Positions 685 to 26,515 of a DNA stretch of 33,064 bases are shown here, piece by piece. Made by a program: the position numbers and the translations under genes. Below the pieces are notes generated by a model. It made no database searches. It saw nothing but the letters and a program-made list of their open reading frames with translations, and was not told the DNA's origin. Position 1 is the first letter of the stretch, and every line of letters starts with the position of its first letter. The DNA comes from a virus. The DNA is taken from positions 1 to 33,064 of the IMG/VR virus record IMGVR_UViG_3300049477_000280; one strand, 5' to 3'.

Positions 685-1122
685 ATGGCACTTAATGCAA
701 GGCAGCGCATATTCGTCGCTCAATATTTGAAACATAAAAATGCGACTAAAGCAGCAAAAGAAGCTGGTTATAGTGAAGATTCTGCTCATGTTATTGGTCC
801 ACGTTTGTTAGAAAATGTTAGTGTTAAGGAAGAATTAGCTAAAGGCGTTCAATCTATCACTGAATCGCTTGGCATTGGTCCAGAATACATCCTTGGAAGC
901 TTAAGACAAGTTGCAGATAGATGTATGCAGGGTGAAAAAGTAATGGAATTTGACCCTGTTTCTAAAGAAATGGTTGAAACTGGTGAATGGAAGTTTGAGC
1001 ACAACGGAGCTAATAAAGCTCTTGAACTTTTAGGTAAATATCAGAAGCTTTTCACTGACAAGCTAGAAATAGATGATAAATCAGGAATTGCAGACAAACT
1101 TAAGAAGTTTAAAGGAAAATAG
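685..1122 (+). CDS. terS: terminase small subunit
   Basis: This 145-residue protein has the Terminase_2 pattern: an N-terminal LNARQRIFVAQYL segment, then a helix-turn-helix-like region (ATKAAKEAGYSEDSA, residues about 20-34), a charged middle and a lysine-rich tail. The family recognises the packaging site on phage DNA and passes it to the large subunit. Length is typical. The start is set by the family-like N terminus; no SD precedes it, and a promoter ends only a few bases upstream. The next gene, a methyltransferase, follows immediately, and the large terminase comes after that. Confident on family resemblance by eye. Confidence 0.9.
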   Translation: MALNARQRIFVAQYLKHKNATKAAKEAGYSEDSAHVIGPRLLENVSVKEELAKGVQSITESLGIGPEYILGSLRQVADRCMQGEKVMEFDPVSKEMVETGEWKFEHNGANKALELLGKYQKLFTDKLEIDDKSGIADKLKKFKGK

Positions 1123-1126
1123 ATTG
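1111..1126 (+). promoter_or_regulatory. ribosome binding site that decides a TTG start
   Basis: AAAGGA at 1111-1116 lies 7 bases before TTG at 1124-1126. The in-frame upstream ATG at 1073 has no comparable site and would add 17 residues overlapping the small terminase that do not look like the methyltransferase N terminus. Starting at TTG gives MININLLHGDCLE, the usual beginning of this family. Confidence 0.65.
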
Positions 1127-1840
1127 ATTAATATTAATCTTTTACATGGCGACTGCCTCGAGCTTATGAAGTCTATTCCTGATAAGTCTATTGATCTTGT
1201 GCTTACGGATCCACCATATGGCACCACGGCTTGTAAATGGGACACAGTGATTCCATTTGAACCAATGTGGAAGGAATTGAAACGTATTCGCAGAGATAAT
1301 GCTGCAATTGCATTATTTGGTGGTGAGCCGTTTAGTTCTGCTCTTAGGATGAGTAATATTAAGGAGTTTAAATATGATTGGATTTGGGAAAAGCAAAATT
1401 TTGTAAATGCTTTAATGGCAAAAAAACAACCACTAAAAATTCATGAATTAGTAAATTTGTTTTATAAGCAACAGGCTAAATATTATCCACAAGGTATCTT
1501 AAAATGTAATAAAGTAACAAAGCAGGGCAGAAAATGTAGTGATATTTTTGGGCAAAATATCACAAGAAAAGAATCATATTTTCAGGAATTTACAAACTAC
1601 CCGACTAGCATTTTGATTCACTCAAAAGGTGGCAATAATGTACATCCCACTCAAAAACCAGTTGCCCTTCTTGAATACCTCATCAAAACCTACACTCTTG
1701 AAGGTGAAACAGTCCTAGACTTCACAATGGGAAGCGGTTCAACAGGAGTCGCTTGTAAGAATTTGAATCGAAACTTTATTGGAATTGAAAAAGACGACAA
1801 GTATTTCGAGATTGCAAAGAATAGAATAAATGAAGCATGA
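1124..1840 (+). CDS. DNA methyltransferase, beta class (N6-adenine or N4-cytosine)
   Basis: A 238-residue protein starting at TTG. It carries the catalytic motif DPPY (residues 29-32) near the N terminus and the S-adenosylmethionine-binding motif DFTMGSG (199-205) near the C terminus, preceded by HPTQKP (174-179). That order is the beta-class arrangement. The middle segment would be the target-recognition region. It transfers methyl groups to exocyclic amines of DNA bases, probably protecting phage DNA from host restriction or marking packaging sites. No restriction enzyme partner is nearby, so it is an orphan. It lies between the two terminase genes and overlaps the large terminase by 11 bases, so it is co-transcribed with packaging genes. 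Target sequence cannot be read from the protein. Confidence 0.88.
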   Translation: MININLLHGDCLELMKSIPDKSIDLVLTDPPYGTTACKWDTVIPFEPMWKELKRIRRDNAAIALFGGEPFSSALRMSNIKEFKYDWIWEKQNFVNALMAKKQPLKIHELVNLFYKQQAKYYPQGILKCNKVTKQGRKCSDIFGQNITRKESYFQEFTNYPTSILIHSKGGNNVHPTQKPVALLEYLIKTYTLEGETVLDFTMGSGSTGVACKNLNRNFIGIEKDDKYFEIAKNRINEA

Positions 1841-3293
1841 CATTGACCTTGAACTCGCAGAAGCAGTTGCTCAATATGAATTCGATCCACTTGGATACGC
1901 AGAACGAGCTTACGACTGGGGATCTGGTGAACTTGCTGATGCGGCAAGTCCCAGAACTTGGCAAAAAGAAATTCTCGCAAGTATTACAACTCACCTTACT
2001 GATGAAAAAACCAGGCATGAACCGCTTAAAATTGCAGTCGCTTCGGGACATGGAATTGGAAAGAGCGCTTTAGTCGGAATGGTTACTAACTGGGCAATGA
2101 GCACTCACGATGATTGCAAAATTGTCATGACTGCAAATACTGATACTCAACTTAGAACTAAGACAATGCCAGAGGTTGGAAAATGGTTCAAATTGGCCAT
2201 AACTTCTCATTGGTTTAAGACAAATTCAGAGTCCATTCATTCAATCGATAAAAAGCATGAGAAAACATGGCGATTAGACGCTATACCTTGGTCTATAAAT
2301 AATACCGAGGCTTTTGCAGGTCTTCACAACAAAAACAAGATCATAGTCCTGATATTTGATGAGTCGAGCGCAATTTCAGATAAGGTCTGGGAAGTCGCTG
2401 AAGGTGCCTTAACCGACGAAAATACAATTATCATCTGGCTAGCTTTTGGTAATCCGACAAGGAATACAGGTAGATTCAAGGATTGCTTCAATAAGGACAA
2501 GCATCGTTGGCAATGCTGGCAAGTGGATTCAAGAAATGTTGAGGGTACAAACAAGACTCAAATATTGAAGTGGATCGAAGATTATGGAATTGATTCAGAC
2601 TTTGTTAAGGTACGAGTTAGAGGATTATTCCCTTCAGCATCACTTAAGCAATTCATCACGCAAGACTTAGTCGATAATGCTTATAATAAGCAGATAGACA
2701 AGAAGTCATATGAATTTGCACCTAAGATCATTTCACTAGATCCGGCATGGGAAGGTGACGATGAGTTAGTCATTGCTATGCGGCAAGGTTTGCACTTTAA
2801 GATAATGAGAACAATGCTTAAAAACGATAATGATATCGAGATTGCTAATATTTTAGCTCGTATTTGTGATGAAGAAAAACCAGATGCGGTTTTCATCGAT
2901 GGTGGTTATGGAACAGGGATAATTTCAGCAGGCAAGACTTTAGGCTATAAATGGCAAATTGTTTGGTTCAGCGGTGCAAGCGGTGATGAGGGATGTCTCA
3001 ATAAACGTGCTGAAATGTGGAAAAACATGCGAGATTGGTTGAAAGATGGTGGAGTTCTTCCAGAAGACCCAAGTCTTTCACAAGAAATCATAGGACCTGA
3101 GACAGTTGCTCGTTTGGATGGTAAAATCCAGCTTGAATCAAAGAAAGATATGAAGTCCAGAGGTCAGCGTTCACCAAATAGAGCCGATGCTTTGGCTTTA
3201 ACTTTTGCCTTTCCAGTAAGCAAAAAGCGAGCTGTTGAACAGAAAAATAGATATGCAGATAGATCTAACAATTCTCAAGGTTGGATGTCATAA
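1830..3293 (+). CDS. terL: terminase large subunit (packaging ATPase and nuclease)
   Basis: A 487-residue motor protein. The ATPase half has Walker A SGHGIGKS (residues 72-79), Walker B IIVLIFDE (171-178) and a coupling motif AFGNPT (205-210). The RNase H-like nuclease half shows candidate metal-binding aspartates in SLDPAW (D304), VFIDGG (D357) and RADALAL (D453). It pumps DNA into the prohead through the portal and cuts the concatemer. Length is close to P22 gp2 (about 500). The start overlaps the methyltransferase stop. Its 3' end overlaps by 6 bases the end of a convergent HNH gene. Confidence 0.95.
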   Translation: MKHDIDLELAEAVAQYEFDPLGYAERAYDWGSGELADAASPRTWQKEILASITTHLTDEKTRHEPLKIAVASGHGIGKSALVGMVTNWAMSTHDDCKIVMTANTDTQLRTKTMPEVGKWFKLAITSHWFKTNSESIHSIDKKHEKTWRLDAIPWSINNTEAFAGLHNKNKIIVLIFDESSAISDKVWEVAEGALTDENTIIIWLAFGNPTRNTGRFKDCFNKDKHRWQCWQVDSRNVEGTNKTQILKWIEDYGIDSDFVKVRVRGLFPSASLKQFITQDLVDNAYNKQIDKKSYEFAPKIISLDPAWEGDDELVIAMRQGLHFKIMRTMLKNDNDIEIANILARICDEEKPDAVFIDGGYGTGIISAGKTLGYKWQIVWFSGASGDEGCLNKRAEMWKNMRDWLKDGGVLPEDPSLSQEIIGPETVARLDGKIQLESKKDMKSRGQRSPNRADALALTFAFPVSKKRAVEQKNRYADRSNNSQGWMS

Positions 3294-9549: not shown

Positions 9550-11397
9550 ATGAGATTTCCTGGCTTTATTGGTGGATCTTATCAGATGCGCTCTATCACT
9601 ACAGACTCTCAGCGCTGTGTGAATTTATATGTAGACCTTGATGAAATGGGAACAGGCAAAGAAGGTGAAATTGGAGCTCTTCTTGGAACTCCAGGAACTG
9701 AGCTTCTTTTAGCACTTCCACAACAGCCGATTCGTGGCATTTGGGCAGCGAGAAATTATGATAGAATCTTTGCGGTTTCTGGTAATGGTTTTTATGAGCT
9801 TATTAATACTGCAGGTGTTTGGTCTTATATTTTACTTGGTGAACTTTTAACGTCGACTGGAAAAGTAGGCATTTCAGATAATGGAATCGAGATTGCTATC
9901 GTTGACGGCGATAATATGTATGCTTATGCGTTCCTTGAAAAAAGCATTCTGCCTCAAGCTTACAGATTTACAACTTCACCTGCAAATGCCACAGTTGGTG
10001 CAGTTTATCAAAACAATGCTTTTAGTTTCACAGTTTTAAGCACGATAACTGGTGGAACTATCTTAATGACTACCGGATCAGGTGGACCAACTCCATCAGG
10101 AACACTCACTTTAGACAGTGGAACAGGTGATGCAACTATCACTTATTCTTCATTTCAAATTACATCACAAGAACCTTGGCTTCCACTTCATGCCTATGCT
10201 TTAGGTGATACAATTATTCCTACTGTTGGTGGATACATTTACAGATGCATTCAAGCTGGAACATCATTCTCAGTAGAGCCAATATTTAACACAGCTAGAT
10301 TCTCAACTACTATCGACGGCACTGTGATTTGGGAGCGAACAACGTCTTTCAGAGAAGTAACAGATGATGGATTTATTGGTTCAAACATTATCACTTATCA
10401 AGATGGATATTTTATTTTAGCAAAGCCTGGAACTAATACGGTCTACAGCTCCAATCTGTATTCAACTTCATTTAATGCTTTAAATTTTACTAATTTATCA
10501 GGTTCAACTGCTCCAGTTTTAAACATCGTTTCACTTCACAGAAATCTATACATTCAGTCTACGCAAACTACAGAAGTTTATTACAATGCTGGAATTTCAC
10601 CAGGATTCCCATTTGCAAGGATCAATGGTGGATATTTAGAGCAAGGATTAGCTGCTCAGTACTCAATGACTCAGACTGCAAATGCTATGTTTTGGCTTGG
10701 CCAAGATAAATCAGGAAACGGCATTGTTTATACGACTGCTGATTTCTTGCCGCAAAGAATTTCTACATTTGCGATTGAAAGTGAGCTTTCTCAGTACTCA
10801 AATATATCTGACGCTATAGCGTACACTTACACTGAAGGTGGACATAGTTTTTATGTCCTTAACTTCCCTGAAGCACAAAAAACATGGTGCTATGATATCT
10901 CGACAAAGTTTTGGCATGAGCGAGCTTATAATGACAATGGAAACCAAGTCATGCAGAAGCAAGTCTATCATCAGTTCACTTTTGGAATGCATTTTGTGGG
11001 TGATTACACAAACGGAAATATCTATCAACAGTCACAGGATTTTTTCACTGATAATGGAACTGTAATCATAAGAAAACGAGTTTCACCACATTTAGCAAAA
11101 GACATTTTAAGAATGTTTTATAGTTCATTTCAACTTGATATCCAGCAAGGCCAAGGTCTTAACGGAACAGTTCAAGGTAGTGATCCACAGTGTATGCTGA
11201 GATTCTCAGATGATGGAGCTAGAACTTGGTCTAATATCAAGATGGCATCAATTGGCAAAATCGGTGAATACAAGAAGCGTGCAATATTTAGACGTCTTGG
11301 TCATGCAAGAGACAGAGTATTTGAAATCACAATATCTGATCCTGTATTTGTTGCGATTAACGGAGCTGAAATCTATTTAGAAGTAGGTTCTAGTTAA
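9550..11397 (+). CDS. P22 gp10-like packaged DNA stabilisation protein (tail hub)
   Basis: A 615-residue protein whose N terminus (GGSYQMRSITTDSQRCVNLY, residues 8-27) and GTPGTELL, RGIWAARNYDRIFAVSGNGFYEL segments are characteristic of the P22 gp10 family (Phage_stabilise). It plugs the portal channel and forms the tail hub that carries fibres. P22 gp10 is 472 residues; the excess here is an insertion at about residues 137-265 with an Ig-like stretch (SPANATVGAVYQNNAFSF) and a WLPLHAYALGDTI...DGTVIWE unit, resembling small carbohydrate-binding-like modules in phage proteins. Adjacent to gp4-like and fibre genes. Confidence 0.88.
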   Translation: MRFPGFIGGSYQMRSITTDSQRCVNLYVDLDEMGTGKEGEIGALLGTPGTELLLALPQQPIRGIWAARNYDRIFAVSGNGFYELINTAGVWSYILLGELLTSTGKVGISDNGIEIAIVDGDNMYAYAFLEKSILPQAYRFTTSPANATVGAVYQNNAFSFTVLSTITGGTILMTTGSGGPTPSGTLTLDSGTGDATITYSSFQITSQEPWLPLHAYALGDTIIPTVGGYIYRCIQAGTSFSVEPIFNTARFSTTIDGTVIWERTTSFREVTDDGFIGSNIITYQDGYFILAKPGTNTVYSSNLYSTSFNALNFTNLSGSTAPVLNIVSLHRNLYIQSTQTTEVYYNAGISPGFPFARINGGYLEQGLAAQYSMTQTANAMFWLGQDKSGNGIVYTTADFLPQRISTFAIESELSQYSNISDAIAYTYTEGGHSFYVLNFPEAQKTWCYDISTKFWHERAYNDNGNQVMQKQVYHQFTFGMHFVGDYTNGNIYQQSQDFFTDNGTVIIRKRVSPHLAKDILRMFYSSFQLDIQQGQGLNGTVQGSDPQCMLRFSDDGARTWSNIKMASIGKIGEYKKRAIFRRLGHARDRVFEITISDPVFVAINGAEIYLEVGSS

Positions 11398-12182
11398 TGG
11401 CTGAAACCATATCACCGCTTATTTCTCCAGTACCAAATAATCAGCCAATAGTTGATCAGCGTGGCATGGTCTCGATGGTCTGGTCTGGTTTTTTTAATCA
11501 GTTATTTTTAAGATCCGGTGGAGCAGTTGCCTCGACTAATACTCAGCTGCAAACTCAGATCAATCAAAATACGACTTCTGCAGCGAACACAATAAAGGGA
11601 AATAACACAGGATCAGCAACGACTACTTTCGATTTAACTCCTGCTCAAGTCACTGCAATGCTGAGTTTGTTTTCATCATCTTTAAAGGGATTAGTTCCTG
11701 GATCTGGCGGAGGGACAAGTAATTTTCTAAGAGCTGATGGAACATGGTCTGCTCCGATTACTAGTGTTTTTGACTTCTTTACTTCATCTAGGGTTTTTAC
11801 TGATAGTTCATCTATTTCATCTGCAACATATGTCACTGCTAGCAATAGTCCTGCATTTACTTTCACACCTAATTTCACAGCTAAATATAAAATCTATGCT
11901 TCTGTTCCAGTTGCTTTAAATGATGCCGCTTCAGCAAAGGGAGCCGTTCAAATCATCAAAACATCTGGAACTGGAACTTTATTCTATGATTCACAAGCTG
12001 CAGTTGGAGGGGATACTGCAACGTCTGATCTTCAATCATCAGTTTATGTGCAAAATATTTATGAATTAACTGAAGGTGTTTCGTATGTTTTCGATATTCA
12101 AGCAAAGCTGCTAGCAGGAACAGGTCTAGTTATTGAAGGTCTTGATTCTCCGTTTTACATGTTTGCTGAGAGGGTAGAATGA
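11397..12182 (+). CDS. fibre-like virion protein
   Basis: The 261-residue product begins with a proline-rich segment and a SMVWSGFFNQLF motif seen in small virion-attachment domains of phages. A Gln/Asn/Thr-rich stalk follows (residues about 45-70), then GLVPGSGGGTSNFLRADGTW (100-119), a linker typical of phage fibre proteins. The last 130 residues look like a beta-sandwich (alternating beta strands, no cysteines), similar in feel to C1q/TNF-like receptor-binding heads. Starts inside the gp10-like stop (TAATG). Role as adhesin or short fibre is inferred from motif and position. Confidence 0.65.
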   Translation: MAETISPLISPVPNNQPIVDQRGMVSMVWSGFFNQLFLRSGGAVASTNTQLQTQINQNTTSAANTIKGNNTGSATTTFDLTPAQVTAMLSLFSSSLKGLVPGSGGGTSNFLRADGTWSAPITSVFDFFTSSRVFTDSSSISSATYVTASNSPAFTFTPNFTAKYKIYASVPVALNDAASAKGAVQIIKTSGTGTLFYDSQAAVGGDTATSDLQSSVYVQNIYELTEGVSYVFDIQAKLLAGTGLVIEGLDSPFYMFAERVE

Positions 12183-13060
12183 AGCACGAAATTATGCAGA
12201 TGGATAAGGCTGTTCTTACTTTAAATGATATTGAGCTAGGTGAACTTGAAACTCATATGCTCAAGGAAGATCAAGTCGAATGTCCAGTAATTCACAGATT
12301 TGGACCTGGAACGTATATCCGCGAGGTTCATATCCCTGCAAATACGCTTGCAATAGGTCATGAGCAAAACTTTAAACATACAAACGTAATGTTAAAGGGC
12401 CGAGTGACAATGCTCAATGACGATGGCTCTACAACTCAATATCAAGCACCTATGATCTTCACTGGCAAACCTGGACGAAAGATTGGGTTTATTCATGAGG
12501 ATATGGTCTGGCTTAACGTGTATCCAAATACTGAAGGTGAGCAGGATATTGAAAAGCTTGAAAATAAATGGATGACCAAATCAGATACATTTAAACTTTC
12601 AGAGAAAATGCAGAATTGTTTGATGATTGGAACAAAGCTTGATGATCATGAGGATTTTGAGCAGGCAATTCATGAGCTTGGTTTTTCAGCAGATGAAGTT
12701 AGAAAAATGTCAGAATGTGAAAATGATATGACAGAGCTTCCTGATGGAGCTTTTATGTTTAAGGTTGCTGATTCTTTTATTGAAGGAAAAGGCGTTTTTT
12801 CTACTGCTGATTTTGCTATTGGTGATATAATTGGACCTGCAAGAATTGATGGTAAAAGAACAGTTTTAGGTAGGTACACCAATCATTCTAAGAATCCAAA
12901 TGCCAGATTTGTTATTGGTGATGAAGAAAACATATATTTAATTGCAAATTCTAAAATTTTAGGTTGTCGCGGTGGCTTTGATGGTGATGAAATAACAGTA
13001 GACTATCGCGAGGCTGTGAAGCTTAATAAAAGTATTGAGGTGAAACCATGTCAGGAGTAG
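12179..13060 (+). CDS. cupin-SET fusion protein (putative lysine methyltransferase)
   Basis: A 293-residue two-domain protein. Residues about 30-120 resemble a cupin: VIHRFGPGTYIREVHIPANT, then HEQNFKHTNVMLKGRVTMLNDDG, and an aromatic-rich ending. A helical linker (about 121-190) follows. The C-terminal domain (about 193-282) has SET hallmarks in order: GKGVFST (203-209) for cofactor binding, GRYTNHSKNPN (231-241) matching the R-Y-x-N-H-S knot motif, and GDEITVDY (269-276) with the catalytic-type tyrosine. SET domains transfer methyl groups from S-adenosylmethionine to protein lysines. It is a short SET without cysteine-rich flanks. The gene starts in the fibre gene's stop and overlaps the first ejection gene by 13 bases, so it is expressed with virion genes. 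Target unknown. Confidence 0.78.
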   Translation: MKHEIMQMDKAVLTLNDIELGELETHMLKEDQVECPVIHRFGPGTYIREVHIPANTLAIGHEQNFKHTNVMLKGRVTMLNDDGSTTQYQAPMIFTGKPGRKIGFIHEDMVWLNVYPNTEGEQDIEKLENKWMTKSDTFKLSEKMQNCLMIGTKLDDHEDFEQAIHELGFSADEVRKMSECENDMTELPDGAFMFKVADSFIEGKGVFSTADFAIGDIIGPARIDGKRTVLGRYTNHSKNPNARFVIGDEENIYLIANSKILGCRGGFDGDEITVDYREAVKLNKSIEVKPCQE

Positions 13061-13765: not shown

Positions 13766-15082
13766 ATGCCTATAGAAACGTCAATGTATGATCTTAAGAA
13801 TATGGCAAATCCTGCAGAGGATTATGATAAAGCCTATAAAGGCTCTATTGATCGTCAAGAAAAGGCCATGAGTCTCAAGAGTCTTGCTATGGAACAAAAA
13901 GCCAAAGAGCAAGGATTTCAAGATCAGCAAGCTATCAGAAAAGCCTCAAGAGAAAATGTTGATCAATTTGGTCAATTCAATTCTCAAAATGCTATTGCTC
14001 AAGTTTCAAAACAAAATCCTATGGCAGCAATGCAAATGCAGAAGATGGTTAATCAGTATGGCATTGATGGCGCTGCTCAACATGCGGAACGTGCTCAACA
14101 GTTCTTTGCTAATACAACTCCTGAGAATTATGCAGAGCAAAGAGAGAAGATGATTAAATCAGGATTTGAAGAATTTCAAAAGCTTCCTGATGTTTATATT
14201 CCTTCAGTTATTCAACGTGGACTTGTTGGATCATCAAGTGCTGCTCAACAAATGTCTATGTTACAAGCTCAAGCACAACGTGAAATGGAAATTAGAAAAG
14301 TACAAATCGAGCAGGGTATTATGCCAAACGGTGGATCATATGATCAATATGGTATTCCAAAAGCTGCAGATCCTGTTCCTGGAATTATGCCAACAAATTT
14401 CAAAGGAAAAGTAGGTGCTTTACCTCCAGAGGCTCAAGGTCTTGGTCCTGGTGCAGTTATTCCTGCTGGCAAGCGTGACATGAAGGCTCAAGAAATGGCT
14501 AATGACCAATTAAGTAAAAGCGCTGCAGGACAAGATTATACAACAGCAAAAAATAATCTATTAGCTGTTAAAAATGCACAAAGCTTAGTTAATGAGGCTG
14601 CTGATCCAAATGAAATTACAAATTTGATGCTTCCTTTATTAGCTGTAGAATCCGCAAAGCTTGCTGCAGGAAAAGCTCCAACAGCAGAAGAAATGAGTCA
14701 CATGCTTCCTCAAAATAGATTAACAGCAATGGCAAAATCTATTTCATATCTTACAGGACAGCCAGAGGCAGCAAATCAAGGTGAGTTTGTTGAGCAGCTA
14801 AATAAATATCTAGAAGATTTAAAAAAGAACTCAGTAGAAAATATCAAGGCTTACCATCAAAGTGCTTTAGATGCTGGAATCAGAGCTGGAATGTCGCCAA
14901 AGACTGCAGAAGCATTTAAGGCATCAAAAGCTCGTGAATTGCGTGATCTTTCAGAGACTAGAAAAAATGAATCAAAAAGCTCTGGAATTAGTCAGCAAGA
15001 CAAGCAAGCAATCGAATGGGCTAAAAAGAATCCAGGTCCACAAGCTGATGCAATTTTAAAAGCCAATGGGGTTAAGAAATGA
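13766..15082 (+). CDS. putative internal virion / ejection protein
   Basis: The 438-residue product is almost wholly helical and rich in Gln, Ala and Met (for example QNPMAAMQMQKMVNQYG and SSAAQQMSMLQAQAQREME), with no signal peptide or transmembrane segment. A proline/glycine-rich break (residues about 195-230) divides it. I recognise no catalytic motif. Composition and place between two other ejection-type genes suggest an internal virion protein that is expelled with the DNA, analogous to P22 gp20 (471 residues), but no sequence match is claimed. SD AAGGGG upstream; it ends overlapping the next gene by ATGA. Confidence 0.6.
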   Translation: MPIETSMYDLKNMANPAEDYDKAYKGSIDRQEKAMSLKSLAMEQKAKEQGFQDQQAIRKASRENVDQFGQFNSQNAIAQVSKQNPMAAMQMQKMVNQYGIDGAAQHAERAQQFFANTTPENYAEQREKMIKSGFEEFQKLPDVYIPSVIQRGLVGSSSAAQQMSMLQAQAQREMEIRKVQIEQGIMPNGGSYDQYGIPKAADPVPGIMPTNFKGKVGALPPEAQGLGPGAVIPAGKRDMKAQEMANDQLSKSAAGQDYTTAKNNLLAVKNAQSLVNEAADPNEITNLMLPLLAVESAKLAAGKAPTAEEMSHMLPQNRLTAMAKSISYLTGQPEAANQGEFVEQLNKYLEDLKKNSVENIKAYHQSALDAGIRAGMSPKTAEAFKASKARELRDLSETRKNESKSSGISQQDKQAIEWAKKNPGPQADAILKANGVKK

Positions 15083-17553
15083 AGAATTGCTATGAGGACG
15101 GCGGATTAGTTCAAGGCCAAGCAAAGTTTGAAGGAAATTCTCCTGAAAATGATACTGTCCATGCTAAATTAAGCCCTGGTGAAATTGTAATTGACCGTGA
15201 AACTATCTCAAAAGGTCCTGAAGCAATTCTTGATTTTGTTTTAGATCAACTTAAATATCCTCATAAAGATTCTAAAAATCATTTGTGGGATGGAGGACAG
15301 GCAGTTAATCCAAAACAAGCTGAATTAGCTGAGTATTTTGGAGCAAAGCCTGCTGCGGCTCCATCTTCAGGACAGAATATTGTTAAACCTGAAGATGAAG
15401 AATTTAGACAATTAACTACTGCCTATAGTAATTTAGGTCCAGCAAGAATGTCTCCAAAGATGCTTGATAGATTAAGAATTTTAAATGCACAAAGACAATA
15501 TCAAGCTCAGCCAGTTCAACAAGCTCCAATTGGTTATGCTGAAGGTGGAACTGTTCAAGGCTTTGATCCAGATAAGTATTTAGCTCAAAAATCGGCATCT
15601 GCTGAATTTGATCCTAATAAATATCTTGAACAAAAGACTGGTAAAAAAGAAACTTCATTTGGTGATAAAGCTCAGACTGCTCTTGAGAATTACGGCCAAG
15701 CAATGACACTTGGTTATTTACCTCAGATTCAAGCTGCAACTGAGCCAATTTCTGCAAAGATCTTCAATGCCGTGACTGGTGAGAATGTTGAAGCTGATCC
15801 ATATTTACAAGCTCGTGATGCAAACATAGCTCGCATGGAAAAACAGTCTGCAGAAAATCCAAAAAGCGCATTAGCTGGAACAGCCGCAGGAATTATTGGT
15901 TCCGCGATTGTTGCTCCAGAGTTACCAATTCTAAAAGGTGCAGGTGCTTTAAAAAATATTGGTCGTGGTGCAATCATGGGAGCAGGCTATGGACTTGCTC
16001 AAAATCCTGGTGATGTTCAAGGTGAAGTAAGTCCGTTGCAAGTTGGTGAAAGACTGAATAATGCAAAGACAGGCGCTGCTCTTGGCGCTGCTGTTGGCGG
16101 AGCAGGTGCTTTAATCGATAAAGGTGCAAAAGCACTAAAAGGATCTGCTGAAGTTGCTCGTGAAACTGCAAACACTCAAGCTGTTAAGGCTGCAGGTGGA
16201 ATGCTTAAAGATATGCGAGTGCTGAATGCAAATGATAAAATTGATGAAATTGGAAAATTTGCTTTAGATAAGGGAATTGTAAAAGCAGGTGACACTGTTC
16301 ATGATGTTGCTGAAAAATCAGATACTGTAAGAGAAGCAGCAGGTAAGCAGCTTGATGACATTTATAAGGCTGCTCAGGAAGCGGTAAAAAATCAAAGATC
16401 AAAAATAGCTCAACAAGTTGAGTTATCACCTGGACCTGAATTTATATCTAAAACATATGAGCCATCAACAAATCTTGATCTGGTGCAATTTCCAAATAGA
16501 AAAAAGGGACAGTTTGGGATTAATTTAATTGAGAAAAAAGCACTTAATGAACATTTTGATAAGCAGCTTGGTGAGTTTGGTACTCAGACTGAAATGATTC
16601 CTGTTGGAAAATCATCAATTGAAATGCCAATAATGCCTGGATTTAATCCTTCAATGGAGAAAGATAAAATTTTATCTTCTGTTTCTTCAAAGCTTGGCGA
16701 TAGTCCAGATAAAAAAACAGCATTAAGAACTGCAAAATCTTATTTGGATCAATTAATAGAAACACATGGAAATAGTTCTTTAGATCCAAAAACAGCCAAT
16801 AATATTAAAACAGAGCTTGATAAGCAGATTAATTATTCAAGAAATCCACTAACTAAAGATCCAGCAAAAGAACAAGCATTTACTGCAATGCGCAGCTATA
16901 TCAATGATGCTGTAAAAAATCATATAGAAATGCTTGGAAAAGAATCAGGTAATCCTGATTTAGCAAAACAACTATTAGCTGCTAATAAAGAATACGGATT
17001 CGCGAAACAGTTGCAAACAATGGCTGAAGATCGAGTTAGCCGTGAAACTGCAAATAGAATGTTTGGTTTAACAGATACTATTGCTGGAGCTGCTGGAGCT
17101 GGAGCAGGCTCAATAATTGGCGCGGCTTCAGGACATGGTGCTGAAGGTGGATTAGCACTTGGATTACTATCAGCTGGAGCAAATAAACTTGCTAGAACTG
17201 CAGGACCTGGAGCATTAGCTTCTGCAGCTGATAAAGCGGCACCAATCTTAGAAAAAACAGCTGTTCCACTAGGAAAACTGCTTGAAAAAGCACCAAAAGA
17301 AGTACTTCAAAAAGCTACAATTATGGAAGCTGCTAGTCTTTCAAAAGCAGGTCCTAAAAAATGGTCAAACGATGGTTATTCTGTTTTGTTTAAACATGTG
17401 GACAGAGATGAGAAAGAGTATTTACGATCAATGAAGGATAAACTTTTATCTAGTCCAAAAGGACAAAGATTGTTGATCGAAGCATCAGCTTTAAAGCCTG
17501 GATCTAAGAAATTAGACAAAGTGCTAGCTGACATTAAGGAGCTACAAAAATGA
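15079..17553 (+). CDS. putative large DNA injection protein
   Basis: An 824-residue protein. The N terminus has GGLVQGQAKFEGNSPENDT followed by AKLSPGEIVIDR (residues 8-40), a motif that recurs at ends of phage injection and tape-measure proteins. A tandem unit FDPDKYLAQK / FDPNKYLEQK lies at about 162-186. Two long Gly/Ala-rich hydrophobic regions (about 264-306 and 660-710) could insert into membranes as the protein is ejected; between them is a helical region with charged residues. This fits the role of P22 gp16 (609 residues), which forms part of the trans-envelope conduit. No muramidase motif seen. Starts and ends with ATGA overlaps. Confidence 0.7.
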   Translation: MKNCYEDGGLVQGQAKFEGNSPENDTVHAKLSPGEIVIDRETISKGPEAILDFVLDQLKYPHKDSKNHLWDGGQAVNPKQAELAEYFGAKPAAAPSSGQNIVKPEDEEFRQLTTAYSNLGPARMSPKMLDRLRILNAQRQYQAQPVQQAPIGYAEGGTVQGFDPDKYLAQKSASAEFDPNKYLEQKTGKKETSFGDKAQTALENYGQAMTLGYLPQIQAATEPISAKIFNAVTGENVEADPYLQARDANIARMEKQSAENPKSALAGTAAGIIGSAIVAPELPILKGAGALKNIGRGAIMGAGYGLAQNPGDVQGEVSPLQVGERLNNAKTGAALGAAVGGAGALIDKGAKALKGSAEVARETANTQAVKAAGGMLKDMRVLNANDKIDEIGKFALDKGIVKAGDTVHDVAEKSDTVREAAGKQLDDIYKAAQEAVKNQRSKIAQQVELSPGPEFISKTYEPSTNLDLVQFPNRKKGQFGINLIEKKALNEHFDKQLGEFGTQTEMIPVGKSSIEMPIMPGFNPSMEKDKILSSVSSKLGDSPDKKTALRTAKSYLDQLIETHGNSSLDPKTANNIKTELDKQINYSRNPLTKDPAKEQAFTAMRSYINDAVKNHIEMLGKESGNPDLAKQLLAANKEYGFAKQLQTMAEDRVSRETANRMFGLTDTIAGAAGAGAGSIIGAASGHGAEGGLALGLLSAGANKLARTAGPGALASAADKAAPILEKTAVPLGKLLEKAPKEVLQKATIMEAASLSKAGPKKWSNDGYSVLFKHVDRDEKEYLRSMKDKLLSSPKGQRLLIEASALKPGSKKLDKVLADIKELQK

Positions 17554-18317
17554 GTGCAGTTTTATCTCCGTGGTTTGCTCAGCAGTTTTTTGATAATAAC
17601 GGACTACCTCTAGTTGGAGGTAAGATTTACACTTATGAAGCAGGGACTTCAACTCCACTTGCTGCTTTTACTGATCAAGGTGGCTTAACACCACAGTCGA
17701 ATCCGATTGTTCTTGATGGTAGCGGACGAGCACAAATCTGGATTCCAAATGTAAACTATAAATTTGTGGTTAAAACATCTTTAGATGTAACCCTTTACAC
17801 TTATGATTTTGTAAATCCTTTTTCTATTGCAAATGGATCTATTGGAACTGCACAACTTGCTGATGGAGCAGTGACAGAACCAAAGCTTGCTACAAATGCA
17901 GTGTCTACAATCAAGATTCAAAATGGCGCTGTAACAGCACAGAAACTAGCTGCTGGAGTCGGCATTTTGCCGGATCTGGCAGTTGGACCTGCACAATTAT
18001 ACACGACAATAAGCGCAGCAATTACAGCAGCAGTTCCAGGTCAAAGCATTTATGTGCAGACTGGAAACTATCTTGAAAGTGTCACTGTAAATAAACCTAT
18101 CACAATTATAGGCTCAGGTCGCGGAGCTGTGATCGGTGGAACTTTAACAATTGCAAGCGGTGGAAGTTATTCAATGGTTCAAAATATGAGAGTGATGACT
18201 GGTATTGTAGTTGATTCTGGAGTTATTCAATCTCAAATATTAAATTTCTGGAATGCAGCAGGACAGTCGGTAACAGATAACGGCACTAATTCATTTCTTC
18301 AGGGAATGCAGGAGTAA
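17550..18317 (+). CDS. tailspike-like adhesin with N-terminal virion-binding domain
   Basis: The N-terminal 75 residues (FFDNNGLPLVGGKIYTYEAG, residues 13-32, then NPIVLDGSGRAQIW, 51-64) match the beta-rich head-binding domain found on many podovirus fibres and spikes. A stalk of repeating units (GSIGTAQLADGAVTEPKLA, GAVTAQKLAAG) follows to about 137. The last 110 residues (146-255) are a short beta-helix-like domain (YTTISAAITAAVPGQSIYVQ) that recurs at the end of the 914-residue fibre (18746). Total 255 residues, much shorter than P22 tailspike (667) and without an obvious enzyme core. It likely anchors or serves as a receptor-binding protein. Confidence 0.8.
   Translation: MSAVLSPWFAQQFFDNNGLPLVGGKIYTYEAGTSTPLAAFTDQGGLTPQSNPIVLDGSGRAQIWIPNVNYKFVVKTSLDVTLYTYDFVNPFSIANGSIGTAQLADGAVTEPKLATNAVSTIKIQNGAVTAQKLAAGVGILPDLAVGPAQLYTTISAAITAAVPGQSIYVQTGNYLESVTVNKPITIIGSGRGAVIGGTLTIASGGSYSMVQNMRVMTGIVVDSGVIQSQILNFWNAAGQSVTDNGTNSFLQGMQE
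17985..18314 (+). repeat. 110-residue C-terminal module, copy 1
   Basis: Residues 146-255 of the tailspike-like protein align without gaps to residues 805-914 of the large fibre (copy 2 at 21158-21487). Counting by hand gives 65 identities in 110 positions. Both start at GP(A/S)Q.YTTI and end at Q-E followed by the stop. The identity is also clear in DNA, for example the 19-base AGTGTCACTGTAAATAAAC in both. Confidence 0.9.
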
Positions 18318-18745: not shown

Positions 18746-21490
18746 ATGATTAAGTTTTTATTCATTTTATTATTTTCACTAAATGTTTTTGCACAACAAA
18801 ATGGATGGATTGATTTACCGCCAAGTGGAGGTGGATCTGGGACTATTACTTCAGTAGGTTTATTGTTGCCCGCTAGTGTCTTTAATATCACAGGATCACC
18901 AGTTACAACTACAGGAACTCTTACTGGATCATTCATTGATCAGAATGCTAATACTGTTTTTGCTGGACCTACATCTGGAGCGGCAGCAACTCCAAGCTTC
19001 AGACTACTTGGTCCTTCTGATATTACTGGTGGAAATATAAATACTTTTGCAGGATTTGATGCTTCAGGAAATTTATTCTCTGTCCCTGAGTTTTTTATCA
19101 ATACCACGTCTGGTGGAATGGACATTGCTCTAACTGAACAGCCTAATAATGGCGGTGGAACAAGTGTACATAATCAGAATGTTAATTTTGATCCACTTCA
19201 AAATTCTCCTAATGAAAACTGGAATATTTATAATTTATCTGCTCAATTTGACGTAAATAATTCAGGATTTTCTCAAGGTACAAATGGAAATGCAGCTCAG
19301 TTGCTAAATTTGAGCTTTAACCATCAAAATACTGGTCCTATTGGTCAGCTTGTTTTTGAAAATATAACAGCCAGTATTGGAAACGGAACAGATCCATTAA
19401 CTACGAATGGATTGGTAATAGCAGCAACTGGAATAAATTATAATGCAAATGTAACTTTAAATGGTGGATTTCAAGGTTATGGATTTAGTCCAAATGTAAA
19501 TGCTGCAGCTATAGATGGAACAAACTTTTATGTAAATGCCTTTTCTGATTTCTCAAATATTGGTATTACGATGGGATCATATAATTCTGTTACAAGTAGC
19601 CCATCTATTGCAGGAATTAAAAATAATTTCAACTATACAGGTGTTAACATAAATCCTCAGATTACAACATTAAATGGAAATGCTGGAGCAACTGGATTTG
19701 GCTTCTATGGAACATACACCACGACTAGTGCAACTGGTGGAATTCAAGGTGTAAATATAAATCCTAATATCGTAACAATGGGAGCAACTGGTTATTATCA
19801 CGGTATTGATATCAATGCTAACATCACAACAGCTCATGGAAATATTAACGGATTAAACATTAACTCTAGTATTGCTGCAGGTGATGCAAACTATGCAGGT
19901 ATTAATATATATCCACAGAGCTCTGTATCCTTACCTTATGTAGTTGGTATTAATGCAGACTTAAACGGTATTCCTTCCACAACACAAAGACAGGGCTTAA
20001 CTTTAAATGGAGGAATGCTACAGGCATATTCTGATTATGACACTAGCGTTTTGCCTGCTTCACCTGGATTTATGAATCAAAACGCATTAGGTGGATTATT
20101 TCATGTAGAGTCTGGATCACCAATGACAAGCACTTTAGTTCTTGCGAATAACTTTGGAATGGCGGCTCAGTTTGATGATGACATGGGACCAGATGCATTT
20201 GGCGGATTTCTAGGTTATGTAGGAAATGGATTATTAAGCCAAGTTGCAGTTAATGCAGGGAAAACAGTGGATACGTTTACAGGCGCAGCAATAGCCGCAT
20301 CAGTTCCATCAATACCTACTAGTGGCGGAACAATTACAAATGCAAACATGTTGACAGTTGCAGGTCCAATTAATGGCGGTGGAACTTTATCTGTAACAAA
20401 TTTAAAAACTATTAATATTCCTTCATTTTCAAATGGATTTGCAGCAACAAATGCATGGGGTTTGTATGTTGCAGATACTTCTTTAGATAACTGGTTTGCT
20501 AAGAATGTCGTTATAGGTGGAGCAACTGGTAAACCTGTAGGATCTGAAGCTTTGAGCGTTACAGGAACTGCTTATATTGATGGAGTTCTAGATATGAACA
20601 CTCATCAAATACAAAATGTAGTTGATCCAACATTAGCTCAAGATGCTGCAACTAAGAACTATGTGGATACGTTTGGAGCAGTCACTGCTGTTTCTGTGGC
20701 AACGGCTAATGGCTTTGCAGGATCATCAAGTGGTGGAACGACTCCTGCTTTAACACTGACAACAAGTGTAACAGGTATGATCAAAGGTAATGGAACTGCA
20801 ATGTCTGCAGCAACAGCAGGAACGGATTATTCTGATGGAACCGCTTCTTTAGCAACTGGTATTTTAAAATCAACAACTGGAACAGGTGTATTATCGATTG
20901 CAATTGCAGCAGATTTTCCAACTTTAAATCAAAATACGACTGGAACAGCTGCAAACGTGACAGGTATTGTTGCAGAGGCAAATGGTGGAACTAATCAATC
21001 AACTTATACTATTGGTGATGTTTTATATGCTTCAGCTGCAAACGTTTTAAGTAAGTTAGGAATCGGCTCAGCAGGACAAGTTTTAACTGTAGTTGCTGGA
21101 GTTCCTGCATGGCAAACTCCATCAAGTGGAGCAAATATTCTCTGTGATAGAAACGTAGGACCTTCTCAAACATATACAACTATTGGTGCAGCAATTACTG
21201 CAGCTTCAGCAGGTGATAGTATATGTATTCAGACTGGAACTTATGCAGAGAGTGTCACTGTAAATAAACAACTCACAATTACAGGCTCTGGCCGTGGTGT
21301 TGATATTACTGGATCATTGACAGTAACATCTAGTGGAGATTATTCTTTAATTCAGCAGGTTAAGGTTGATAGTGGAATTACTATTGATTCTGGAGCTTTA
21401 TATGTGCAGTTACTTTCTTTCTGGAGCGCATCTGGACAGACAATAACTGATAACGGTACAGGTAGTTATATTAGAGGAATTCAAGAATAA
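18746..21490 (+). CDS. large fibre-like protein with N-terminal signal peptide
   Basis: A 914-residue protein. It begins MIKFLFILLFSLNVFAQQ, a clear Sec-type signal peptide with probable cleavage after VFA. Then come a Gly-rich linker, a long beta-repeat region (about 190-420) of GxNINPxITT and GIDINANITT-like units, a NPxxAQDAATKNYVD collar (about 625-640), GNGTAMSAATAGTDY (about 675-690) typical of phage fibres, and the 110-residue end module shared with the tailspike-like protein. Virion fibres normally lack signal peptides, so this may be exported to the cell surface instead, or be a fibre derived from a host secreted adhesin. The start directly abuts the preceding stop; AAAGGA is about 10 bases upstream. 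Confidence 0.8.
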   Translation: MIKFLFILLFSLNVFAQQNGWIDLPPSGGGSGTITSVGLLLPASVFNITGSPVTTTGTLTGSFIDQNANTVFAGPTSGAAATPSFRLLGPSDITGGNINTFAGFDASGNLFSVPEFFINTTSGGMDIALTEQPNNGGGTSVHNQNVNFDPLQNSPNENWNIYNLSAQFDVNNSGFSQGTNGNAAQLLNLSFNHQNTGPIGQLVFENITASIGNGTDPLTTNGLVIAATGINYNANVTLNGGFQGYGFSPNVNAAAIDGTNFYVNAFSDFSNIGITMGSYNSVTSSPSIAGIKNNFNYTGVNINPQITTLNGNAGATGFGFYGTYTTTSATGGIQGVNINPNIVTMGATGYYHGIDINANITTAHGNINGLNINSSIAAGDANYAGINIYPQSSVSLPYVVGINADLNGIPSTTQRQGLTLNGGMLQAYSDYDTSVLPASPGFMNQNALGGLFHVESGSPMTSTLVLANNFGMAAQFDDDMGPDAFGGFLGYVGNGLLSQVAVNAGKTVDTFTGAAIAASVPSIPTSGGTITNANMLTVAGPINGGGTLSVTNLKTINIPSFSNGFAATNAWGLYVADTSLDNWFAKNVVIGGATGKPVGSEALSVTGTAYIDGVLDMNTHQIQNVVDPTLAQDAATKNYVDTFGAVTAVSVATANGFAGSSSGGTTPALTLTTSVTGMIKGNGTAMSAATAGTDYSDGTASLATGILKSTTGTGVLSIAIAADFPTLNQNTTGTAANVTGIVAEANGGTNQSTYTIGDVLYASAANVLSKLGIGSAGQVLTVVAGVPAWQTPSSGANILCDRNVGPSQTYTTIGAAITAASAGDSICIQTGTYAESVTVNKQLTITGSGRGVDITGSLTVTSSGDYSLIQQVKVDSGITIDSGALYVQLLSFWSASGQTITDNGTGSYIRGIQE
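21158..21487 (+). repeat. 110-residue C-terminal module, copy 2
   Basis: The last 110 residues of the large fibre, paralogous to 17985-18314 with no gap needed. It shares the strings ESVTVNK, GSGRG and TDNGT. The module ends two otherwise unrelated proteins separated by one gene. Confidence 0.9.
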
Positions 21491-24685: not shown

Positions 24686-25600
24686 ATGTCCAACTTAATA
24701 AGAATAGAAAATGTCCAGCAATTATTAAAAATGGTCGAGCCTTCATTCAATCAAATGGCAGAGCTTCATAAAGCAGTCGATTATCGCAGAGAAGCTTCTT
24801 TTGCTCTACAGGCTTTGCAGGATAATGATTTTCTTGCAACTACTGCAATGAAAAATCAGGATTCTTTCAAGCGTGCAATTATTAACGTTGCAGCGATTGG
24901 CCTTAGCCTTAATCCTATCAAGAAACTAGCTTATTTAATTCCAAGAAAAGGGAAGGTCTGTCTTGATATTTCATACATTGGTTTAGTTACTTTGGCTGTG
25001 GATGAGAAGTCCATCAAATGGGCTCAAGCTGAGATTGTCAGAGAGAATGATAACTTTACTTTTAACGGAGTTGGAGAAAAACCAGACCATGAATTTAAGC
25101 CTTTCTCAGAAGATCGAGGTAAGATCATTGGTGCTTATTGTGTAGCTAAGACGAATCAAGATGAATTCATAACTATTCAGATGAGCATTAAGCAAGTCTA
25201 TGAAATCAGAAATCGCTCTGAATCTTTCAAGTCAGGATCTGGACCTTGGAAAACTGATGAGGAGGAAATGATCAAGAAAACTGTTATTCGTAGAGCTTAT
25301 AAATCATGGCCAAGAGCTTCAACTATGGACCGATTTGAAAGAGCAGTTGACGCTGTTGAGGATGCACATGAATTAGCAGCTCCACTTGCAATAGATAATG
25401 TAAAAAGAGCAGAGCAGTTTTTATTCATTGAGGAAATGCTAGTTAAGCTGAATATTGACAAGGAATATTTCATAAAAGATAAGGTTCCAAAGTTCACACG
25501 ACGAGAGATTGCACAATTTGAAGATTTAACGGATCAGGAGATTTCTATTATCTTGATTCAATTGACTCAATTAGTGGAAGAGAAAGGAAACTTGGAATGA
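24686..25600 (+). CDS. recT: RecT-family single-strand annealing protein
   Basis: A 304-residue protein with the RecT hallmarks: an N-terminal helical region, SFKRAIINVAAIGLSLNPIKKLAYLIPRKG (residues about 60-90), DISYIGLVTLA, and a GSGPWKTDEEEMIKKTVIRRAYKSWP block (about 190-215). It anneals complementary strands and works with a 5'-3' exonuclease; a YqaJ exonuclease is encoded two genes on. SD AAGGAG. Normal family length is about 270-330. Confidence 0.93.
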   Translation: MSNLIRIENVQQLLKMVEPSFNQMAELHKAVDYRREASFALQALQDNDFLATTAMKNQDSFKRAIINVAAIGLSLNPIKKLAYLIPRKGKVCLDISYIGLVTLAVDEKSIKWAQAEIVRENDNFTFNGVGEKPDHEFKPFSEDRGKIIGAYCVAKTNQDEFITIQMSIKQVYEIRNRSESFKSGSGPWKTDEEEMIKKTVIRRAYKSWPRASTMDRFERAVDAVEDAHELAAPLAIDNVKRAEQFLFIEEMLVKLNIDKEYFIKDKVPKFTRREIAQFEDLTDQEISIILIQLTQLVEEKGNLE

Positions 25601-25827
25601 TTATCAATGATGAATATATTGATGAAAATCAAGTCACTAAATGTTGGTATGCTGAAGATTCATTCTATATACTTGGCATTAAAAGCAAATGTTGGGTTAT
25701 TAAATATAGGATTAAAAACGATTCCAATACTTATTATGTTAATGCAAATAAAGAACAATATAATTTATTTCTTAATGCTTGTAATAAGAAAAATGAGGAA
25801 ACACTTTTAGATGAAAACAATCAATGA
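25597..25827 (+). CDS. small protein between recT and exonuclease, unknown
   Basis: A 76-residue product rich in Asn, Lys and Tyr, mixed beta/alpha in appearance (YAEDSFYILGIKSKCWVIKYRI). Starts in an ATGA overlap with recT and overlaps the exonuclease by 17 bases. No recognised domain. Location suggests a helper of the recombination pair or a hitchhiker. Confidence 0.65.
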   Translation: MIINDEYIDENQVTKCWYAEDSFYILGIKSKCWVIKYRIKNDSNTYYVNANKEQYNLFLNACNKKNEETLLDENNQ

Positions 25828-26515
25828 TATTGCAAAAAACCTAGAAGAATTTGAAAAACGCTTTGGACTTAATGTTATAGGTGCAGAGCAAGGATCTGGA
25901 ATATGGATGAACATGAAACTAGGCGTTATTTCAGCAAGTAATGCCTCTAAAGCAATTGCAAAGCGAGATTCTGACAAGCGCTTAACTTATATGTCTGAAT
26001 TAGTTGCTCAAGTCTGCACAGGAATTCAAGAAGAGATTAGCTCTAAATATCTTGATTGGGGATCTGAGCATGAAATGTCTGCTCGTGCTGCATATGAGTT
26101 GAAAACTGGATACACTGTAAAACCAGTATGTTTTGTATATAAGGATAATACATATAGAACTGGGTGTTCACCTGATGGCCTTGTTAGTGACACAAAAGGC
26201 TGTGAAATCAAGACTCCTTACAATGCGGAAAACTACATCAAATTTCTGTGTGAAGATTTTTTAAAGCCTGAGTATGTATATCAGTACCAATTTACATTGT
26301 GGGTTATGGATGGAGAGGAGTACGATTTTGTTCAATACCATCCTTTTATGAAACGTAAGCCATTGCATATATTGAATGTAAAAAAAGACATTGAAATACA
26401 TAAGAAGTTTGATGACTTAATACCTGTGTTTATTGAAGATATGGACAAAATGCTAAAAAAGATAGGTATTAAATATGGCGAACAATGGGAAAGACTGTCA
26501 GATAAAAGCCCTTAA
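25811..26515 (+). CDS. YqaJ-type (lambda Exo-like) exonuclease
   Basis: A 234-residue nuclease. GVISASNASKAIAK (residues 35-48), LDWGSEHEMSARAAYEL (81-97), SPDGLV (119-124) and CEIKTPY (130-136) are the conserved motifs of the YqaJ fold, with D/E..K metal-site residues (E85, D121, E131, K133). It degrades one strand of double-stranded DNA ends so that RecT can anneal the other. Ends 41 bases into the next gene. Confidence 0.92.
   Translation: MKTINDIAKNLEEFEKRFGLNVIGAEQGSGIWMNMKLGVISASNASKAIAKRDSDKRLTYMSELVAQVCTGIQEEISSKYLDWGSEHEMSARAAYELKTGYTVKPVCFVYKDNTYRTGCSPDGLVSDTKGCEIKTPYNAENYIKFLCEDFLKPEYVYQYQFTLWVMDGEEYDFVQYHPFMKRKPLHILNVKKDIEIHKKFDDLIPVFIEDMDKMLKKIGIKYGEQWERLSDKSP

What the first reader, a model, noticed from the sequence alone, without database searches (positions are those of the whole stretch)
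12179..13060. Cupin-SET fusion encoded among phage virion genes
Seen: the C-terminal domain has GKGVF, RYTNHSKNPN and GDEITVDY in SET order; the N-terminal part looks like a cupin. Known: SET domains methylate lysines of proteins and are best studied in eukaryotes. Inference: located between fibre and ejection genes with coupled overlaps, the enzyme may modify a virion protein (coat, fibre or ejection protein) or be packaged and delivered to act on a host target. I do not know of a described function for such a fusion in phages.
Basis: partly seen in the sequence, partly recalled or inferred. Interest (0 to 1): 0.75.

Follow-up and report, generated by a model that had tools for sequence, protein, structure and literature searches.

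The report
Phage cupin–SET protein methyltransferase, virion operon
A large family of short-tailed phages carries, among the genes that build the virion's DNA-ejection machine, a protein that joins a virion-type cupin domain to a very small but intact-looking SET domain (the kind that methylates lysines in our histones), so these phages probably methylate one of their own particle proteins or a bacterial protein, a possibility I found no published test of.

Summary
ORF 12179-13060 (293 aa) folds confidently (pLDDT 91) into a cupin barrel (aa 32-130), a helical linker (131-189) and a SET domain (190-281). The SET fold matches MLL1 (Z 9.7) and vSET (Z 9.0). The SET catalytic residues are kept in essentially all of 88 non-redundant relatives, and the domain is under strong purifying selection (dN/dS 0.09). 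The canonical SET-I insert is missing.

About 445 relatives were found in IMG/VR. In 137 of 159 loci with enough sequence, the gene sits directly before a P22 gp7-like ejection gene, usually with overlapping frames, mostly downstream of a gp10-like tail-hub gene. This is the slot of P22 gene 14. The same cupin occurs alone in this slot in other podoviruses. Elsewhere cupin and SET are separate genes, or fused in reverse order, which points to a functional link.

Best reading: a SAM-dependent protein-lysine methyltransferase of the late virion/ejection module, held in place by its cupin, modifying a virion or ejection protein. Delivery into the host, as with chlorovirus vSET, is the main rival. 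Substrate, activity and virion location are not shown; a conserved lysine target in gp7 was sought and not found. No described function was found in the literature searched.

The parts
12179..13060 (+). Cupin-SET fusion gene, 293 aa
   Evidence: Open frame; PHROG 34170 E 2.8e-86; AlphaFold2 pLDDT 91.1
12272..12568 (+). Cupin (RmlC-like) domain, aa 32-130; homologous to stand-alone proteins labelled 'short tail fiber' or 'tail fiber adhesin'
   Evidence: PHROG 12032 E 5e-27, PHROG 24280 E 4e-23; PDB cupins by Foldseek and VIA
12569..12745 (+). Helical linker, aa 131-189; its second half (from about aa 156) accompanies SET even where SET is separate from the cupin
   Evidence: DSSP on the model; A4 alignment with D159, D183, P188 shared with stand-alone SET proteins
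12746..13021 (+). SET domain, aa 190-281, lacking a canonical SET-I insert
   Evidence: VIA Z 9.7 to MLL1 7u5v, 9.0 to vSET 3kma; profile hits; Pfam SET
12785..12793 (+). GxG motif (aa 203-205)
   Evidence: G203 and G205 88/88
12872..12901 (+). RYTNHSKNPN motif (aa 232-241)
   Evidence: N235 88/88, H236 87/88, N241 87/88, R232 87/88
12983..13006 (+). GDEITVDY motif (aa 269-276) with presumed catalytic Y276
   Evidence: E271 and Y276 88/88
9550..11397 (+). Upstream tail-hub/head-closure gene (P22 gp10-like, Hc3)
   Evidence: PHROG 578 E 1.9e-100
11397..12182 (+). Gene directly upstream, unassigned, in the P22 gene 26 (needle) position; overlaps 12179 by 4 bp
   Evidence: No PHROG or significant Pfam match; position against P22
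13048..13755 (+). Gene directly downstream, P22 gp7-like DNA-ejection protein; overlaps the cupin-SET gene by 13 bp
   Evidence: PHROG 598 E 1.5e-27; next gene in 137 of 159 fusion loci with room
13766..17553 (+). Two following genes (13766-15082, 15079-17553) in the P22 gene 20 and 16 positions
   Evidence: Gene order against P22; only a weak unknown-function PHROG match

Best explanation
The gene encodes a SAM-dependent protein-lysine methyltransferase of the late virion module. The cupin is a podovirus morphogenesis or virion component that sits, as gene and probably as protein, between tail hub and ejection proteins. The helix-plus-SET module is attached to it, covalently here and as a separate neighbouring gene elsewhere, so that a protein of the tail or ejection apparatus is methylated as particles are built. 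Shown here: the folds, invariant catalytic residues, purifying selection, conserved gene slot, overlapping frames, and repeated linkage of cupin with SET. Inferred: enzymatic activity, lysine as target, and a virion or ejection protein as substrate.
For: SET fold and motifs. Catalytic positions invariant or nearly so in 88 nr90 relatives. dN/dS 0.09 in SET, 0.06 in cupin over 26 pairs. A gp7-like gene lies directly downstream in 137 of 159 fusion loci with room, mostly with short overlaps, and a gp10-like gene upstream in 119 of 153. The cupin stands alone in the same slot in Vibrio, Shewanella and Thalassomonas phages and in T7-like Sphaerotilus phage R1 between tail tubular B and internal virion genes. 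SET is linked to cupin in other ways: reversed fusion in L151; separate overlapping genes in L098; separate genes in one cluster in L123, with three genes between them. The corresponding P22 gene 14 product is labelled head morphogenesis, and its low-confidence model gives only acetyltransferase-type top hits, which hints that this slot can hold protein-modifying folds.
Against: No activity or virion proteomics data. No lysine column conserved above 60% in 86 gp7-like neighbours; gp20/gp16-like neighbours were too divergent to test. The cupin works without SET in many phages, so methylation is not universally needed. The tail-fibre label of the cupin rests on annotation without experiments (PMC8703784). 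Some loci (L096, L098) lie outside the gp10/gp7 context.
Confidence: 0.5

Rival explanations
1. The fusion is packaged through its cupin and delivered with the ejection proteins to methylate a host protein early in infection, as chlorovirus vSET is packaged and methylates host histone H3.
For: Neighbouring ejection genes; closest solved viral SET is vSET (Z 9.0), which PBCV-1 packages (PMC7019647); a cupin-only homologue in Shewanella phage X14 is annotated as structural.
Against: No evidence that the fusion is in virions or leaves them. An ejected 33-kDa folded enzyme would have to pass the tail channel.
Confidence: 0.22
2. It is made late and acts on a host or non-virion protein in the cytoplasm (for example ribosomal, transcription or nucleoid proteins), its place in the operon only setting expression time.
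For: SET enzymes have varied non-histone substrates (general knowledge); SET occurs outside the gp10/gp7 slot in L096 and L098.
Against: Recurrent linkage to the virion-module cupin in several architectures and strong conservation of the slot.
Confidence: 0.15
3. The SET fold is catalytically dead or purely structural, a binding or oligomerisation module of a tail component.
For: SET-I is missing, and SET has been gained or lost repeatedly, so it is dispensable on the evolutionary scale.
Against: GxG, NH, PN and catalytic Y are invariant or nearly so across deeply diverged relatives.
Confidence: 0.1

Closest known systems
PBCV-1 vSET (A612L), chlorovirus H3K27 methyltransferase
   Same: Small viral SET; fold Z 9.0, 29% identity over 80 aa; full profile aligns aa 191-279 to vSET 5-110
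   Different: About 17 residues shorter over the aligned span; fused to helices and a cupin; phage of bacteria, which lack the eukaryotic histone H3 target; gene in a virion operon; vSET is reported packaged (PMC7019647), unknown here
MLL1/KMT2A SET domain
   Same: Best profile and structural match (E 4.5e-12; Z 9.7)
   Different: MLL1 spans about 31 more residues over the region aligned; no post-SET zinc site seen here
PHROG 12032 / 24280 podovirus cupins ('short tail fiber', 'tail fiber adhesin')
   Same: Homologous cupin in the same genomic slot before ejection genes
   Different: No SET domain; tail-fibre role unproven
P22 gp14 (PF11039, PHROG 651)
   Same: Same gene slot, 10-26-14-7-20-16
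   Different: No shared family match; low-confidence GNAT-like model; no cupin or SET

Membership tests
SET-domain protein lysine methyltransferases (PF00856) | Sequence match to the SET profile | tested here: met
   22.5 vs cut-off 22.4 for P0001, 35.2 for relative L098; SET-module profile to PDB E 4.5e-12
SET-domain protein lysine methyltransferases (PF00856) | SET fold | tested here: met
   Model pLDDT 91; MLL1 Z 9.7 rmsd 1.9 over 79 aa; vSET Z 9.0
SET-domain protein lysine methyltransferases (PF00856) | GxG, RxxNHxxxPN and GEExxxxY catalytic/cofactor motifs | tested here: met
   Key residues kept in 88/88 or 87/88 non-redundant relatives
SET-domain protein lysine methyltransferases (PF00856) | SET-I insert (common but variable in length; not counted here as defining) | tested here: not met
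   Profile matches MLL1 in two blocks on either side of the SET-I region; fixed 34-residue GxG-to-NH spacing in 84 of 87
SET-domain protein lysine methyltransferases (PF00856) | SAM binding and lysine methylation | not testable with these tools
   Needs biochemistry
vSET-type packaged viral SET enzymes | Presence in the virion | not testable with these tools
   Needs virion proteomics
Podovirus slot cupin (PHROG 12032/24280) | Homologous cupin domain in the slot before gp7-like genes | tested here: met
   E 5e-27 and 4e-23; gene order
Podovirus slot cupin (PHROG 12032/24280) | Tail fibre or receptor-binding function | not testable with these tools
   Annotation only; one cited source notes no experimental validation
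Metal-binding germin-type cupins | HxH...E metal motif | tested here: not met
   Read from alignments: G60-H61-x-Q63...H67-x-N69...G74, no HxH; H67 retained in 75 of 88
P22 gp14 orthologue (PF11039) | Sequence relationship to gp14 | tested here: inconclusive
   gp14 matches only DUF2824 and PHROG 651, P0001 matches others; shared slot only

The most novel reading that the evidence does not exclude
Podoviruses have a protein-modification station in their late operon, next to the ejection genes, and in this family a minimal SET enzyme lacking SET-I, aimed by a virion cupin, methylates lysines of the ejection or tail apparatus, or is injected to methylate a bacterial protein. To my knowledge it would be the first phage SET enzyme with a role in particle assembly or genome delivery.
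Probability: 0.4. Interest if true: 0.82.

Novelty: new variant of a known kind. Interest (0 to 1): 0.62.

Why it matters
SET methyltransferases are known mainly from eukaryotes, giant viruses and a few bacterial effectors. A conserved cupin-SET protein in the virion operon of hundreds of environmental podoviruses, some of them isolated on cultured hosts (Rhodoferax phage P26218, Pseudoalteromonas phage PH1), raises a directly testable question: do phages methylate lysines of their own particles or of their host? It also gives a defined handle on the poorly understood P22 gene-14 and T7 gene-13 slot.

Tried and rejected
Single-sequence phmmer against PDB gave only weak hits (two of them cupins) and no SET; profiles solved this. 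NCBIfam scans gave no relevant match. A conserved lysine in gp7-like neighbours as substrate was not found; gp20/gp16-like neighbours were too divergent (2 sequences each). P22 gp14 as a cupin orthologue is not supported by sequence; its fold was predicted with low confidence (pLDDT 52), so the GNAT hits are a hint only. I suspected GNAT-like small genes beside the cupin in L001 and L123 by eye, but sequence searches gave nothing. Two papers holding 'SET domain' with phage terms were false hits, immunoglobulin I-set/C2-set domains; another was unrelated. No nucleotide-level relative of the window region in the phage collection. The cupin tree has few columns and is weakly resolved; it supports only that SET presence is interspersed, with at least 3 changes forced by starred branches. 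A survey of the Burkholderiaceae failed because a locus id was not accepted as centre.

Full report
What is there. The ORF at 12179-13060 encodes 293 aa. A 41-sequence alignment gave an AlphaFold2 model with mean pLDDT 91.1 and pTM 0.86: helices at the N terminus, a beta-barrel (aa 32-130), helices (124-178) and a compact C-terminal domain (190-281). Structure comparison matches the barrel to cupins and the C-terminal domain to SET enzymes: MLL1 7u5v Z 9.7 over 79 aa at 29% identity, vSET 3kma Z 9.0 over 80 aa at 29% identity. Pfam SET is just above its cut-off on the single sequence, but the family profile reaches E 4.5e-12 against MLL-type SET chains.

Is it a working enzyme? Among 165 relatives reduced to 88 below 90% identity, S199, G203, G205, T228, G231, N235, E271 and Y276 are invariant, and H236 and N241 are kept in 87. 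These include the residues that build the SAM and lysine sites in known SET enzymes (established knowledge). Pooled dN/dS over 26 close pairs is 0.09 for SET, 0.06 for cupin and 0.06 for the linker. An inert domain would not be expected to hold these residues. The SET-I insert is missing: family profiles match MLL1 in two blocks on either side of the SET-I region, and the GxG-to-NH spacing is fixed at 34 residues in 84 of 87. In its place is a conserved ARIdGKRT..GRY segment. The helical segment just before SET goes with SET even when SET is a separate protein, so helix plus SET looks like one module; whether the helices pack where SET-I would lie was not examined.

Where it sits. The window follows P22 order: terminase, portal, scaffold, coat, gp4-like, gp10-like, one unassigned gene, the cupin-SET gene, gp7-like ejection gene, and two genes in the gp20/gp16 positions. 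The cupin-SET gene is therefore in the slot of P22 gene 14. In fusion loci with enough flanking sequence, a gp7-like gene follows directly in 137 of 159 and a gp10-like gene lies upstream in 119 of 153, most often with short overlaps into the next gene. A profile scan of IMG/VR returned 445 relatives; nine contigs of bacterial genome assemblies also carry relatives. These are isolate contigs and metagenome bins; only L096 and L098 were looked at closely enough to see an integrase and phage genes nearby.

Cupin and SET as partners. The cupin occurs alone in the same slot in Vibrio, Shewanella and Thalassomonas phages and in the T7-like Sphaerotilus phage R1, between tail tubular B and internal virion genes, where T7 has gene 13. 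Besides cupin-SET fusions there is a reversed SET-cupin fusion (L151, before a gp7-like gene), overlapping separate genes (L098, Paraburkholderia), separate genes in one cluster (L123), and SET alone near putative virion genes (L096). On a weakly resolved cupin tree, SET presence is clustered but interspersed: 8 changes in the parsimonious count, at least 3 forced by well-supported branches. Recurrent linkage in several arrangements is the main argument that SET works with the cupin.

What it probably does. The best-supported account is a protein methyltransferase tied to virion or ejection assembly. Two cautions: gp7-like neighbours show no lysine conserved above 60%, so gp7 is not an obvious single-site target; and the tail-fibre label of the cupin has no experimental basis that I could find. 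The closest functional precedent for delivery is vSET, packaged by PBCV-1 (PMC7019647). P22 gp14 shares only the slot; its model is poor (pLDDT 52) but the top Foldseek hits are acetyltransferase-type folds, a hint that the slot may hold protein-modifying enzymes in other podoviruses as well.

Novelty. The SET domain was already flagged automatically in a phage record and in metagenomic proteins, and PHROG 34170 holds the family as 'unknown function'. I found no paper describing it. It is a new variant of a known kind: a SET enzyme without SET-I, fused to a podovirus cupin in the ejection module.

Noticed in passing
aa 262-269 of P0001; window 12962-12985: A GC.GG..G-type insertion before GEEIT is conserved in the main clade but absent in Pseudoalteromonas phage PH1, L094, L095 and the stand-alone SET proteins; possible extra loop near the active site.
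   Followed up: partly
aa 134 of P0001; window 12578-12580: A lysine at the cupin-linker junction (FLDKS) is kept in 68 of 88 fusions and mostly absent from cupin-only homologues; a possible automethylation site, untested.
   Followed up: partly
L178 8911-9366 (P22 gene 14): A low-confidence model of P22 gp14 (PF11039, function unknown) gives acetyltransferase-type top hits, suggesting gp14 may be a GNAT-type protein.
   Followed up: partly
L264 3001-3432: In the T7-like Sphaerotilus phage R1 the cupin occupies the T7 gene 13 position, between tail tubular B and internal virion genes.
   Followed up: partly
window 1073-1840: A DNA methylase (N6_N4_Mtase) gene overlaps the start of the next gene (1830-3293), which by position is probably the large terminase although family matches are weak.
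   Followed up: no
window 24686-26515: RecT-type annealing protein and YqaJ exonuclease pair, a phage recombination module.
   Followed up: no
window 18746-21490: A 914-aa protein with no PHROG or Pfam match, after the probable tail-fibre gene at 17550-18317.
   Followed up: no
L093 7953-8870: One fusion carries TNQS instead of TNHS in the SET motif, the only relative of 88 without this histidine.
   Followed up: no
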